The notes beneath the pieces were generated by a model. It did no database searches, was not told the DNA's origin, and was given only the letters and a program-made list of their open reading frames with translations. The translations under genes were made by a program, and so were the position numbers. Positions 44,124 through 48,503 of a DNA stretch of 64,000 bases are shown one piece after another. Where the stretch lies: NCBI GenBank assembly GCA_002150995.1, contig MDHJ01000001.1:2170001-2234000 (forward strand), written 5' to 3'. The DNA is from Clavibacter michiganensis. GTDB lineage: Bacteria; Actinomycetota; Actinomycetes; Actinomycetales; Microbacteriaceae. Every line of letters starts with the position of its first letter. Position 1 is the first letter of the stretch.

Positions 44124-44618
44124 ATGACCGCGCCGCCGACCGTCCGCCCCGCCGTCCCCGATGACGCCGACGGGATCGCCGAGGTCCACATCCGGACCTG
44201 GCGCGAGACCTACGCGCACCTGCTCCCGGCGTCGTACCTCGACGGACTCGACGTCGCGACGCGGGCCGATCAGTGGCGCCGGTCCCTCACCGAGGATCCC
44301 GTCGACGTGCCGCCCTTCGTCGCCCTCGAGGGCGACCGCATCGTCGGCTTCGCGCTCGCGGGGCCGGCGCGCGACGAGGATCCGCCGCGCCCGTTCCAGC
44401 TCTACGCGATCAACGTGGTCGCCTCCGCCCACGGCTCCGGCGCCGGCCAGGCCCTGCTGCACGCTGCCGTGGGCGACTCCCCCGCCTACCTCTGGGCGGC
44501 TGACGACAACCCCCGCGCGGAGGCGTTCTACCGCCGCAACGGCTTCGACCGCGACGGCGGCGTGGAGCAGCAGACGTTCCAGGGCGCGGAGATGGTCACG
44601 GTGCGGATGGTGCGGTGA
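44124..44618 (+). CDS. GNAT-family N-acetyltransferase
   Basis: 164-aa cytoplasmic acetyltransferase. N-terminal 'TVRPAVPDDADGIAEVHIRT', the central strand 'LYAINVVASAHGSGAGQALL' containing the acetyl-CoA-binding Q/RxxGxG/A-like loop ('HGSGAGQ', about residues 104-110), and the late motif 'NPRAEAFYRRNGFDRDG' are all typical. The substrate is unknown. It is convergent with the endonuclease gene and marks the last native-looking gene before the lower-GC segment. Confidence 0.9.
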   Translation: MTAPPTVRPAVPDDADGIAEVHIRTWRETYAHLLPASYLDGLDVATRADQWRRSLTEDPVDVPPFVALEGDRIVGFALAGPARDEDPPRPFQLYAINVVASAHGSGAGQALLHAAVGDSPAYLWAADDNPRAEAFYRRNGFDRDGGVEQQTFQGAEMVTVRMVR

Positions 44619-44648
44619 GGGCGCCCGCGGCGGCCGCCGTCCGCGTGC

Positions 44649-45713
44649 TCATCCGTTGGTTGCAACTGCGCCGGACTCGTCGCCGGAGCTCCTCGTAGAA
44701 ATCAATTCCTTTGCGCCATAGCTCGCGAACACACCGTCCTCCTCGAAGGCAAGGTCGAATCCGACGAGACCGATGAGCTGGCAGAGGTCTTCAGCCGGTC
44801 GCTTCGGTAGCAGGATGACGCAGACCAAGCCTGGTACAGCGATGTATCGGCGGTAGTCCAGAAGCTGTCCGATGGCCATGCGGACGTCCCCGCGGCCTGC
44901 CGACGCTTTTGCTTCATAGAGCCGTCGGGCCTCGGGATCGTAGATGTCCGTAAGGAGATTTCGTGCACTACCGGCCCCAAGCGGGATCGCCCAGCGCATG
45001 TAGTGGACGCCGGTACTCGCACGGAAAGACGCGACGAGATCGGATTCGACACGTCGAGCCTGAGATGGCTCCGAGCCGGAGACTTCAAAGAAGCGCGTCG
45101 TGTGCAGTTCCTCGGGCACGAGGACAGCGCGTCCCAACTCGCTTGCATGTGGAGCAACGAGAGGGAGCGAATTCACCGCTTCAGGGCTCTCATCTCCGAC
45201 AGGAAGTAGACGGAAGACGAGGACCATGCGCGTCTTCTTGTCTCGTCCAGGAGCCGCTTTCTCCTCCCAAGGAGCGTCTGCGTCGAGGCGATACTCCCCT
45301 ACGTACCGCTGGAGGGCTGTCTGGGTTCCGGCAACCCTGCCGTCCGCTACGAACAAGCGGAGTGATCGACCGTGCTCGGCGTGCTGCGCGATCGCGGCGT
45401 TCACGGTGAGAGTCTGGTCACCCGATCCACCTTTTCCGGTGTAGTAAAAGGCCGCGCTTGTCGCGTCTCGTCCGTCGTAGACGTACCCCGACTTCTCCCC
45501 TTGCTTAGGGTCGGAGAAGATCAGCACGTTAGGCGTCGTCCTCGACGGCACTACGCCCCCCGAGTAGACGCTGCCGCCGTACAGCGTGCTCAGCTGAGTC
45601 CTGGTGAGCCGTTCTCCCGGTTGCGTGACCCACTCATGCTCAGCCACGGCCGCCTCGCGGTCGAGTCTTCTGAGCTCGGTCGAACGGCGCAGTGGTGATG
45701 GACACGCCTTCAC
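44649..45713 (-). CDS. predicted modification-dependent endonuclease: SRA-like (ScoMcrA type) plus PD-(D/E)XK domain
   Basis: 354 aa from GTG 45713, or 332 aa from GTG 45647, which has GAGG just upstream. The N-terminal half ('LYGGSVYSGGVVPS', 'VLIFSDPKQGEKSGYVYDG', 'FYYTGKGGSGDQTL', 'HAEHGRSLRLFV') matches the SRA-like domain of ScoMcrA-type restriction enzymes, which read modified DNA. The C-terminal half has a nuclease-like core 'IYDPEARRLYEAKAS' (E-x-K) then 'IGQLLDYRRYI', as in PD-(D/E)XK enzymes. It would be a type IV restriction or anti-phage factor. Base composition is visibly lower in GC than neighbours, a sign of transfer. Function is inferred from motifs only. Confidence 0.72.
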   Translation of the reverse strand: MKACPSPLRRSTELRRLDREAAVAEHEWVTQPGERLTRTQLSTLYGGSVYSGGVVPSRTTPNVLIFSDPKQGEKSGYVYDGRDATSAAFYYTGKGGSGDQTLTVNAAIAQHAEHGRSLRLFVADGRVAGTQTALQRYVGEYRLDADAPWEEKAAPGRDKKTRMVLVFRLLPVGDESPEAVNSLPLVAPHASELGRAVLVPEELHTTRFFEVSGSEPSQARRVESDLVASFRASTGVHYMRWAIPLGAGSARNLLTDIYDPEARRLYEAKASAGRGDVRMAIGQLLDYRRYIAVPGLVCVILLPKRPAEDLCQLIGLVGFDLAFEEDGVFASYGAKELISTRSSGDESGAVATNG

Positions 45714-45737
45714 AATACCTAGCGCATGTTAGGTATT
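45714..45737. promoter_or_regulatory. perfect palindrome, candidate operator
   Basis: AATACCTA (45714-45721) and TAGGTATT (45730-45737) are exact 8-bp inverted repeats with an 8-bp spacer. One arm coincides with the -10 hexamer of the endonuclease promoter, and the other lies in the -35/-10 spacer, so a bound protein would block RNA polymerase. This resembles control sites of restriction systems. Confidence 0.6.
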
Positions 45738-45744
45738 CGGCCAA
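45716..45744 (-). promoter_or_regulatory. promoter of the endonuclease gene
   Basis: On the minus strand, -35 TTGGCC (complement of 45739-45744) and -10 TAGGTA (complement of 45716-45721) are separated by exactly 17 bp. Transcription would start at or just inside the GTG at 45713, giving either a leaderless mRNA or a leader of about 60 nt to GTG 45647. The rest of the gap up to 45980 shows no gene I can support. Confidence 0.55.
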
Positions 45745-45980
45745 TCCTGACGAGTTGCTCTCGTCACGACCAACTGCCCTGCCGAAGACCCGCACGTACT
45801 ACTTGGCACGTCGAGGCACCCATCACGCCGCGAAGGGAAGCTGGTTCTGGTCGAGAGGGGGCTCGTCGCGAAATCGGACGGCGTGTCGCCGGCATTGCCG
45901 GAAAGCCCTCCGACCGCGCCGCGCCGCGCTCACGTCCTGCGACCGCCGATCGGTTTCTCGATGGGCGCGCTGTCAGCACG

Positions 45981-47312
45981 TCACATCGGGTACCAGCGGT
46001 TGCGCTCTCCGTCGGCGTCAGGGCCGCATCGGTAACTCGCACCGGAGGAGGACTTCTCCACGCTCCCGACCTCGGTCTTCTTGCAGAACGCACCAGGCGT
46101 GATGACGCGACCAGGTGCTGGTGCGGGAGCAGGTGCCGGCGCCGGCGGCGCGGGTGCCGGCGCGGGGGCGACCGGGGCGGGCGCGGGCGCAGCCGGCTTC
46201 GGCGCGGGTGCCGGAGCAGCGGGTGCCGGCGCAGGAGCAGGCGCCACAGTCGGCTCCACGGTCGGCGCGGGGGCGGGCGCGAGCAGCGTGAGCGTCACGG
46301 TGGATCCAGCGTCGAGGCGCGATCCCGGCGTCGGGCTCTGCGACGTGACGGTCATGCCGTCGGTCGGGCTGGTCCTCTCCCCCGACTCGAGCACGTACTG
46401 GACGAGGTAGCCCGCCTCACGGAGCAGCGTGCGCGCATCTGCGGCGGACTTGGTGCTGACGTCCTCCACGACGTGCACCGCGGGTGTCGGCGTCGCGGAC
46501 GGCGTCGGCGTGGGGCTGGGCGTCGGCGACGAACTCGCGCTGATCGCGGCCGCCGGGCGCGGGCCGGGTGCCGAGGCGGCGACCGGGACGGCGGCGCCGA
46601 TGATCAGGAGCAGGATCGCTCCGGCCGCGGTCGCGCTGTTGCGGGGCGGTGAGGCGAGCGCTGGTACCCAGCTGCGCCGTCCGGTGAAGAGCGGGTACAG
46701 CGCGGTCACGAGGGCGACCAGCCCGACGGAGACGAACATGCCCCCGAAGCCGCCGATCGCCGTGGTGATCAGCACCGCCAGCGCGACCGCCGCCCCGATC
46801 ACCCACGACGTGGCCGGGTGCCGGCTCGGACGCGTGTCAGTGAGGACCGCCATGGGAGTCACGGGGGCGGAGGCCGCTGCCGGCACGACGGGAGCCTGGA
46901 TCCTGCGCGGGGCCGGAGGAGCGGGCACCGCGACCGCCGTGGCAGCCGCACGCTCCGCCTTCAGTCGCGCCGCCTCGACGCGCTCCGCGGCCTTGACCTG
47001 CCTGGCCGCCTCCCGCTGAGCGGCCTTCTCGACCCTCTGCTGCTCGGCCGCCGCGGAGCGAGCGGCCTGCGCACGCGACACCTCGGCGGCGTGCTCGGCC
47101 TGGGCCCGCGCGGTGTCGGCGGCACGAGCGGCGCCAGCCTGTGCGGCCTCCGCGGCGGCCAGTGCCGCGACGTGCGCGGCGGGAGCCTGCGGGGCGGCGG
47201 GCTGCACCATCGGCGCGACGTGCTGCGTCCACGCGGCGCCGTCCCAGTACCGGAGCTGGCCGGATCCGTCGGGGAACCAGCCGGCGGGTGGGGAGGACGG
47301 GACGTCGGGCAT
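45981..47312 (-). CDS. DUF2510/PASTA-domain membrane protein with Ala/Pro-rich stalk
   Basis: 443 aa. The N-terminal DUF2510 motif 'PAGWFPDGSGQLRYWDGAAW' (residues 9-28) is followed by an Ala-rich coiled coil (about 45-125), two or three transmembrane helices (about 165-240), a Pro/Thr/Ser segment, a PASTA-like domain ('STKSAADARTLLREAGYLVQ', 'SQSPTPGSRLDAGSTVTLTL'), a long AP-repeat stalk and a small two-Cys C-terminal module ('GAFCKKTEVG', 'YRCGPDADG'). PASTA domains bind muropeptide or wall fragments, so it may span to the cell wall. GAGGAG precedes ATG 47312. Confidence 0.8.
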   Translation of the reverse strand: MPDVPSSPPAGWFPDGSGQLRYWDGAAWTQHVAPMVQPAAPQAPAAHVAALAAAEAAQAGAARAADTARAQAEHAAEVSRAQAARSAAAEQQRVEKAAQREAARQVKAAERVEAARLKAERAAATAVAVPAPPAPRRIQAPVVPAAASAPVTPMAVLTDTRPSRHPATSWVIGAAVALAVLITTAIGGFGGMFVSVGLVALVTALYPLFTGRRSWVPALASPPRNSATAAGAILLLIIGAAVPVAASAPGPRPAAAISASSSPTPSPTPTPSATPTPAVHVVEDVSTKSAADARTLLREAGYLVQYVLESGERTSPTDGMTVTSQSPTPGSRLDAGSTVTLTLLAPAPAPTVEPTVAPAPAPAPAAPAPAPKPAAPAPAPVAPAPAPAPPAPAPAPAPAPGRVITPGAFCKKTEVGSVEKSSSGASYRCGPDADGERNRWYPM

Positions 47313-47508
47313 GGTGCTCCTCGGTGCGTGCCGCGACGAAGGGGGTAAGCGGCGGTGGATCCGTCGAATGTCGACGCCTGAGGCTATGAGCGCTCTCTCC
47401 TGGCGGGAAGCCCTCACACGGGGGTGAAAGGGAACCGCGGCCGAGGGAACCGCGCCCCGGGCTGACGCGACGCTCGCGAGAGCGGCCCGCGGGCGTGGAG
47501 GGGTCCCC

Positions 47509-47926: not shown

Positions 47927-48424
47927 TCAACCCCCGCGATGGAGTTCCACGGCCGCGATGATCTCGGTCGCCGCGTCCTCCGCGGGCACGTGCTCCCAGA
48001 AGCGGAGGACCGTCCAACCGAGGCTCCGGAGCAGGACGGTGACCTCCGCGTCGCGCTCGACGTTCCGCGCGAGCTTCGCCACCCAGTAGTCCGCGTTCGC
48101 CTTCGGGAGGTGCAGGTGATCCGGACAGCTGTGCCAGAAGCACCCGTCGATGAACACGGCGATGCGCTGACGGGTGAATGCGATGTCGGCACGGGTCCTC
48201 GACTCCTGCACCACGCGGAGGTCGACCCGATATCTCAGGCCTCGAGCGTGCAGGAGGCGCCGGACGAGGAGCTCCGGCCGGGTGTCCCGACGCTTGTTCG
48301 CCCGCATGATGCTGCGCGCGGCGTCGGAGGAGGCCCAGGACATGCGGTGAGGGGACCATGGACGACCGACATCACCCGGAGACGACGAATGCCCCGGCCG
48401 GACCGTGAGGTCCTTCCGAGGCAT
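47927..48424 (-). CDS. vsr: very short patch repair-type endonuclease (Vsr)
   Basis: 165 aa from ATG 48424; ATG 48343 (138 aa) is an alternative closer to the usual family length of about 135-150. Vsr nicks DNA at T:G mismatches arising from 5-methylcytosine deamination. Family sequence is clear: 'RANKRRDTRPELLVRRLLHA', 'RTRADIAFTRQRIAVFIDG', zinc/active-site 'CFWHSCPDHLHLPKANADYW' and 'VLLRSLGWTVLRFWEH'. No cytosine methyltransferase is encoded nearby. The gene starts just downstream of tRNA-Pro. Some members of this fold act instead as restriction-type nickases. Confidence 0.88.
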   Translation of the reverse strand: MPRKDLTVRPGHSSSPGDVGRPWSPHRMSWASSDAARSIMRANKRRDTRPELLVRRLLHARGLRYRVDLRVVQESRTRADIAFTRQRIAVFIDGCFWHSCPDHLHLPKANADYWVAKLARNVERDAEVTVLLRSLGWTVLRFWEHVPAEDAATEIIAAVELHRGG

Positions 48425-48429
48425 GTCCG

Positions 48430-48503
<74 letters not shown>

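What the first reader, a model, noticed from the sequence alone, without database searches (positions are those of the whole stretch)
44649..45713. Candidate undescribed type IV restriction/defence enzyme: SRA-like reader fused to a PD-(D/E)XK nuclease
The N-terminal half matches the SRA-like module of ScoMcrA (YGG..GG, FSDP..G, YTG.G..GDQ). ScoMcrA itself carries an HNH nuclease, whereas here an E-x-K type core is found instead. The gene is short, single, lower in GC than its surroundings and under its own tight promoter. It may cut cytosine-modified or phosphorothioated DNA of phages.
Basis: partly seen in the sequence, partly recalled or inferred. Interest (0 to 1): 0.75.

Follow-up and report, generated by a model that had tools for sequence, protein, structure and literature searches.

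The report
Modified-DNA reader fused to nuclease
A single low-GC gene in a plant-associated actinobacterium encodes a protein with one half that looks built to recognise chemically modified DNA bases and one half that looks built to cut DNA, so it is probably an unnamed one-gene defence against viruses or foreign DNA that carry modified cytosine.

Summary
Window 44649-45713 (-) is one intact ORF, 62% GC in a 74.5% GC window. AlphaFold2 gives two confident domains. The N-terminal one (about 30-175) is an SRA-like reader: all 13 Foldseek hits at E<=0.001 are SRA proteins, ScoMcrA first. The C-terminal one (about 218-340) has PD-(D/E)XK topology with D256, E267-x-K269 and Q283xxxY287. D/E/K/Q is complete in 69 of 90 two-domain sequences; another 11 keep a shifted ExK. 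No Pfam or NCBIfam model passes its cut-off. Best reading: a one-gene type IV (modification-dependent) restriction enzyme for modified cytosine, MspJI-like in layout, built from a ScoMcrA-type reader and a different nuclease. Genomes with the Asp-pocket reader tend to lack C5-methyltransferases (0 of 10 against 172 of 361; class-sample replicate 6 of 17 against 197 of 361, not significant). The phosphorothioate part and the 'tight promoter' are not supported. The gene fills an insertion site that is empty, or holds other cargo, in sister genomes. New variant of a known kind; activity untested.

The parts
44649..45713 (-). Whole gene: SRA-like reader + PD-(D/E)XK nuclease, 354 aa from GTG 45713; possible true start GTG 45647 (332 aa)
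   Evidence: homologues
45189..45626 (-). Reader domain, residues 30-175: SRA-like fold; predicted flipped-base pocket Y77, D80, Y91
   Evidence: searches (pLDDT 85-96 in blocks up to residue 170; 13 of 13 Foldseek hits at E<=0.001 are SRA proteins; profile hits ScoMcrA 1.7e-8, SUVH5 0.013), conservation
44694..45062 (-). Nuclease domain, residues 218-340: alpha-beta-beta-beta-alpha-beta, D256, E267-A-K269, Q283xxxY287, R221/E223 in first helix
   Evidence: pLDDT 91.3, pTM 0.85; D-E-K-Q in 69 of 90; Foldseek not significant
45714..45737 (.). Perfect inverted repeat (8-bp arms, 8-nt spacer) directly upstream of the annotated start; possible operator
44619..45980 (.). Occupied insertion site between the GNAT gene (44124-44618) and the PASTA/DUF2510 gene (45981-47417)
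   Evidence: the same interval is 45-51 bp in 5 of 10 comparable Clavibacter genomes, about 0.5 kb in 2, about 3.35 kb in 3 (helicase-like gene; Pfam-scanned in one of them)

Best explanation
A stand-alone, single-chain modification-dependent (type IV) restriction endonuclease. [quoted passage not shown] The C-terminal PD-(D/E)XK domain (D256, E267, K269, Q283) then cuts the DNA nearby, so incoming phage or plasmid DNA carrying such bases is destroyed while the host, which has no detected C5-methyltransferase, is spared. Shown here: the ORF, both predicted folds, conservation of the pocket and catalytic residues, swapping of both halves with other restriction modules, and the insertion hotspot. 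Inferred: base flipping, the modified-cytosine substrate, cutting, and defence.
For: Fold: AlphaFold2 from 35 aligned sequences, pLDDT 84; Foldseek, 13 of 13 hits with E<=0.001 are SRA proteins (ScoMcrA 7, KRYPTONITE 2, MspJI 2, AspBHI 1, SUVH9 1). Nuclease domain alone: pLDDT 91, pTM 0.85, right strand order. Conservation in 90 distinct two-domain sequences, the window's included: D80 73 D / 16 E / 1 A, Y77 81 Y (9 gaps), Y91 82 Y / 8 F, D-E-K-Q complete in 69. Module swapping: same reader with HNH (L110, L152), Shedu with a weak EVE hit (L068), KAP NTPase (L099), AAA_5 ATPase in an archaeon (L151); same nuclease with an EVE-like domain (L102, E 2.7e-4) and with reader + sulfur-binding-like insert (L063). 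C5-methyltransferase (PF00145) avoidance: own genome none, 7 of 18 in the genus; family sample, Asp-pocket readers 0 of 10 against 172 of 361 genomes without a reader match, Fisher p 0.002. Mobility: hotspot, low GC, phage and plasmid copies.
Against: No activity is known to me for any member. The nuclease domain has no Foldseek hit at E<=0.001 (0 of 656) and its profile finds no nuclease in PDB sequences. The methyltransferase avoidance is not absolute: in the class sample 6 of 17 Asp-pocket readers have PF00145 against 197 of 361 (p 0.14), 8 of 20 (p 0.25) if two split copies and the three-domain L063 are counted, and 15 of 33 for all reader matches (p 0.36). The Asp/Glu split was chosen after seeing the data and the Glu type is one clade, so the Asp-Glu contrast is not replicated on the tree. 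The genome is rated 92% complete, so an absent gene may be missed. The phage Sidious copy sits beside N6/N4-, not C5-, methyltransferases. Eight plasmid copies have lost ExK.
Confidence: 0.75

Rival explanations
1. A type IV enzyme, but for something other than 5mC/5hmC: a bulkier or different phage base (glucosylated cytosine, another modified pyrimidine, N4- or N6-methyl bases).
For: The pocket Asp is Glu in a whole clade of relatives whose genomes carry C5-methyltransferases at background rate (7 of 15 against 172 of 361). Phage Sidious gp63, of the Glu type, lies beside two N6/N4 methyltransferases. Asp-type genomes of the class sample are not clearly poor in C5-methyltransferases. An SRA-containing viral enzyme dependent on m6A is published (PMC10101028, title and start of abstract seen).
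Against: The window protein has the canonical Tyr-Asp-Tyr pocket set, aligned with SUVH5 and ScoMcrA, and Asp-pocket genomes of the family sample lack C5-methyltransferases.
Confidence: 0.2
2. A phosphorothioate-dependent enzyme like ScoMcrA.
For: Closest reader relative by sequence is ScoMcrA; one distant homologue (L063) has a sulfur-binding-like insert (NCBIfam 6.4e-6 for the insert, PDB SBD 0.0099).
Against: The window protein has no match to such a domain and little room for it: the two domains are about 40 residues apart. In ScoMcrA the sulfur is read by the separate SBD (PMC7461809, passages; PMC6224610, start of abstract in a listing).
Confidence: 0.03
3. A housekeeping or repair nuclease (mismatch- or methyl-linked repair) rather than defence.
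For: A Vsr gene lies 2.2 kb away (47927-48487) and the domain's weak Foldseek hits include EndoMS and Mus81.
Against: Patchy presence (37 of 398 in family, 33 of 394 in class), 37-40% identity within one genus, low GC, hotspot, phage/plasmid copies.
Confidence: 0.05
4. A catalytically dead or decaying remnant: a reader that only binds.
For: Some relatives are dead or broken: 8 of 8 plasmid copies lack ExK, one Clavibacter genome (G016) shows only a C-terminal fragment.
Against: The window copy has a full ORF with all catalytic and pocket residues.
Confidence: 0.05

Closest known systems
ScoMcrA (SBD-SRA-HNH, Streptomyces coelicolor; PDB 5zmm/5zmn)
   Same: Reader domain: best sequence-profile (1.7e-8) and structure match (4e-8)
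   Different: No sulfur-binding domain; PD-(D/E)XK instead of HNH; 354 aa instead of 561 (chain length of 5zmm_A)
MspJI / AspBHI family (N-terminal SRA-like, C-terminal Mrr-like PD-QxK)
   Same: Same layout: SRA-like reader first, PD-(D/E)XK nuclease second; Foldseek 4.6e-5 to 1e-4
   Different: ExK instead of QxK, no Mrr_cat match at E<=1, extra QxxxY motif, weaker reader similarity than to ScoMcrA
PvuRts1I / AbaSI family (5hmC/5ghmC)
   Same: SRA-like reader plus PD-(D/E)XK nuclease on one chain
   Different: Domain order reversed (nuclease first); Foldseek only 0.05-0.23
TagI-type SRA-HNH enzymes
   Same: One-gene modified-cytosine endonuclease with N-terminal SRA (PMC12707154, section 33)
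   Different: HNH nuclease; not among the rows listed
Shedu nucleases with N-terminal sensor domains
   Different: The window's protein shows no SduA/DUF4263 match

Membership tests
Type IV / modification-dependent restriction enzyme | Modified-base reader and nuclease in one system | tested here: met
   Predicted folds and conserved residues, (prediction, not activity)
Type IV / modification-dependent restriction enzyme | Cuts modified and spares unmodified DNA | not testable with these tools
   Needs biochemistry
Type IV / modification-dependent restriction enzyme | No cognate methyltransferase beside it | tested here: met
   Neighbours are a GNAT-like gene (named by eye, recalled) and a PASTA/DUF2510 gene; no PF00145 match in the genome. 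N6/N4 methyltransferase families were not searched in the genome
SRA domain superfamily | Structural match to SRA domains | tested here: met
   13 of 13 hits at E<=0.001
SRA domain superfamily | Tyr/Asp/Tyr base pocket | tested here: met
   Y77, D80, Y91; alignment to SUVH5; conservation; the residues' roles in SUVH5 are recalled, the Asp role in MspJI-like enzymes is in PMC4259335 (passages)
Pfam SAD_SRA (PF02182) | Score over the gathering cut-off | tested here: not met
   14.7 against 30.7 bits
PD-(D/E)XK superfamily | D...(D/E)xK on adjacent strands with flanking helices | tested here: met
PD-(D/E)XK superfamily | Significant structural match to a solved member | tested here: inconclusive
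   none at E<=0.001; 15 of the first 30 rows are PD-(D/E)XK enzymes by my recall of their folds, TM (query) up to 0.54
MspJI family | C-terminal Mrr-like domain with PD-QxK site (PMC12707154, section 33) | tested here: not met
   ExK here; no Mrr_cat hit at E<=1
PvuRts1I family | N-terminal nuclease, C-terminal SRA | tested here: not met
   Order reversed
ScoMcrA family | SBD + SRA + HNH | tested here: not met
   Only the SRA part found

The most novel reading that the evidence does not exclude
This is one member of a widespread, unnamed family of modification-dependent enzymes (profile matches in 8-9% of sampled genomes of its family and class, across both domains in 25 of 398 of the family sample) in which a ScoMcrA-type SRA reader and a QxxxY-type PD-(D/E)XK nuclease are freely traded with EVE, SBD, HNH, Shedu, AAA and KAP partners, and in which a single Asp-to-Glu change in the base pocket marks a clade with a different substrate.
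Probability: 0.15. Interest if true: 0.7.

Novelty: new variant of a known kind. Interest (0 to 1): 0.45.

Why it matters
If active, it adds a third arrangement of SRA reader plus PD-(D/E)XK nuclease beside MspJI and PvuRts1I, in a family that the Pfam, NCBIfam and PADLOC libraries do not label clearly, so surveys built on them would miss it. It could help explain why methylated DNA enters some actinomycetes poorly (that observation is recalled, not searched), and its Asp and Glu clades are a ready-made set for finding new readers of modified bases. The plasmid copies without ExK raise a testable question about anti-restriction.

Tried and rejected
Single-sequence searches were too weak to decide: phmmer 0.25, SAD_SRA 0.027, PADLOC mREase_IV 0.0059. 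The search for related loci with the lone protein found no relative; an alignment was needed. The nuclease profile against PDB sequences gave only chance-like hits such as apolipoprotein E. A second phage search, with the viral-contig homologue L072, found only phage Sidious again. The idea that the window gene is at the same place as the other Clavibacter copies was rejected: they sit on the other side of the PASTA-Vsr block, beside a different gene, and fall in another part of a quick tree whose deep forks are weakly supported (87 of the 90 sequences used, L059, L060 and L090 left out as partial). The methyltransferase avoidance was kept only as suggestive: strong in the family sample, not significant in the class sample. 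Within the two genera searched as such it is 0 of 3 readers where 7 of 18 genomes are positive, and 0 of 2 readers where 32 of 60 are positive, product of exact chances 0.043; the Clavibacter remnant G016 was counted there as reader-less. The second reader of the latter genus, L153, is also Asp type. PMC6765204, an architecture-guided screen that may list such fusions, is not held, so I could not check it.

Full report
What is there. The ORF at 44649-45713 on the minus strand is open for 354 codons from a GTG. Its GC content is 62.2% in a window of 74.5%. Most homologues begin close to W28, and a GTG at codon 23 (45647) has GAGG a few bases upstream, so the protein may really be 332 residues. 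The window lies in a 3.27-Mb, one-contig genome. The genus is Clavibacter by inference: a same-genus genome (G004, contig C52 of 14,066 bp) corresponds to the named record NZ_QWGT01000052.1, C. lycopersici, of the same length.

Two domains. Sequence searches with the lone protein are weak (SAD_SRA 0.027, ScoMcrA 0.25, PADLOC mREase_IV 0.0059, NCBIfam nothing). A profile of 35 sequences finds ScoMcrA's SRA region at 1.7e-8 and SUVH5's at 0.013. An AlphaFold2 model (pLDDT 84.2, pTM 0.57) shows two confident domains with a loose link at about 176-217. Foldseek's 13 hits with E<=0.001 are all SRA proteins: ScoMcrA 7, KRYPTONITE 2, MspJI 2, AspBHI 1, SUVH9 1. The second domain folded alone (pLDDT 91.3, pTM 0.85) has the order helix, three strands, helix, strand, with D256, E267-A-K269 and Q283-x-x-x-Y287 where PD-(D/E)XK enzymes of the RecB/QxxxY kind have them (the motif name and placement are recalled). 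Foldseek with it gives no hit at E<=0.001, but 15 of the first 30 rows are PD-(D/E)XK enzymes by my recall of their folds (SdaI, EndoMS, PaqCI, Mus81, PvuRts1I and others), among unrelated GTPases.

Conservation. From the loci held, 94 ORFs cover both domains, 90 of them distinct, the window's included. The pocket residues are Y77 in 81 of 90 (gaps in the rest), D80 as D in 73, E in 16 and A in 1, and Y91 as Y in 82 and F in 8. D256-E267-K269-Q283 are all present in 69 of 90. [quoted passage not shown] The residue-to-residue comparison with SUVH5 rests on the alignment and on recalled pocket residues.

Module swapping. The strongest argument for function is that both halves recur with other restriction or defence modules. 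L151's downstream gene, cut in my stretch, matched no Pfam family, so McrC is not shown. The nuclease is joined to EVE in Kineococcus (L102, 2.7e-4, just under Pfam's cut-off), and to reader plus a sulfur-binding-like insert in L063 (NF045808 6.4e-6 for the insert alone, far below that model's curated cut-off; PDB SBD 0.0099). I scanned 10 homologues, 8 and 6 proteins; most other homologues were not scanned.

Distribution and mobility. Matches at E<=1e-5 occur in 37 of 398 genomes of the family (25 across both domains) and 33 of 394 of the class; in 4 of 18 genomes of the genus at E<=0.001, one a fragment. Among 72,556 plasmid records 9 match, one over a short stretch only, and among 50,697 phage records 2, both the same phage, Gordonia phage Sidious, where gp63 sits directly before two N6/N4 methyltransferases. 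Two viral contigs match. I fetched one stretch from each of 15 sister genomes; in the 10 where both genes were found, the interval is 45-51 bp in 5, about 0.5 kb in 2, and about 3.35 kb in 3. The 3.35-kb inserts are 85-89% alike in DNA; a helicase-like gene was Pfam-scanned in one (L145) and is split into two frames in another (L140). In three sister genomes another reader-nuclease, or its remnant, lies on the far side of the PASTA-Vsr block, 37-40% identical to the window's and in a different part of a quick tree. This is the pattern of cargo at an insertion hotspot.

Methyltransferase avoidance. If the substrate is 5mC, a host with its own C5-methyltransferase should be at risk. PF00145 is absent from the window's genome and from the three other Clavibacter genomes with a reader or remnant, and present in 7 of 18 overall. 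In the family sample, of 25 genomes with a two-domain reader, the 10 with Asp in the pocket have none, the 15 with Glu have 7; genomes without any reader match have 172 of 361 (Fisher p 0.002 for Asp, 1.0 for Glu, 0.02 for Asp against Glu). The 12 genomes with partial matches were left out of these rows; 3 of them have PF00145; all 37 readers together give 10 of 37 (p 0.023), and all 25 two-domain readers 7 of 25 (p 0.064). In the class sample, of 17 further Asp-type two-domain genomes, 6 have PF00145 against 197 of 361 (p 0.14). Rows dropped there: G524 and G692 (split copies, both with PF00145), G709 (pocket Ala, with PF00145) and G652 (three-domain L063, without); G693 was kept although its nuclease looks degenerate. 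With G524, G692 and G652 counted it is 8 of 20 (p 0.25); all 33 class readers give 15 of 33 (p 0.36). Pooled Asp type: 6 of 27 (p 0.003) or 8 of 30 (p 0.009). In the genus of the nearest relative the 2 readers have none while 32 of 60 genomes do. The split by pocket residue was made after seeing the family data, the Glu type is one clade, and no correction for relatedness was made, so I take this as suggestive.

Novelty. A 2025 review lists the two-domain SRA-nuclease enzymes: MspJI (N-terminal SRA-like, C-terminal Mrr-like with PD-QxK), PvuRts1I (N-terminal PD-(D/E)XK, C-terminal SRA), TagI (SRA-HNH), and the variation SauUSI (PMC12707154, section 33 read). The window's protein has MspJI's layout but a ScoMcrA-type reader and an ExK/QxxxY nuclease, so it is a member of none of them on the tests made, though it should work like them. 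I found no description of this combination in 8 paper searches, of which I saw listings and abstract starts, nor in the passages I saw of PMC10853773 and PMC12839542, which discuss SAD(SRA)-HNH and sensor-REase fusions. Most subscription papers and REBASE were not available. Hence a new variant of a known kind, interest 0.45.

Noticed in passing
   Followed up: partly
Within 8 kb, DUF4007 and N-6 methylase genes are annotated in 4 of 8 and a DNA cytosine methyltransferase in 2 of 8 (L012, L013).
   Followed up: partly
L063 562-2004 (-): Reader + sulfur-binding-like insert + PD-(D/E)XK on one chain: a possible dual reader of modified cytosine and phosphorothioate without HNH.
   Followed up: partly
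L039, L040, L041, also L042, L043: Stand-alone reader domains of about 160-190 aa without a nuclease in small (0.7-2.0 Mb, some incomplete) genomes of the same family; in three genomes of one genus the neighbouring ORFs look the same by eye.
   Followed up: no
L145 5010-8216 (+), L140, L144: The same insertion site holds a 1068-aa SF1-helicase-like gene in L145; L140 and L144 hold 85-89% similar DNA there, split into two frames in L140.
   Followed up: no
   Followed up: no
45714-45737: Perfect inverted repeat (8-bp arms) directly upstream of the annotated start, found nowhere else in the 18 genomes of the genus searched, even with one mismatch allowed.
   Followed up: partly
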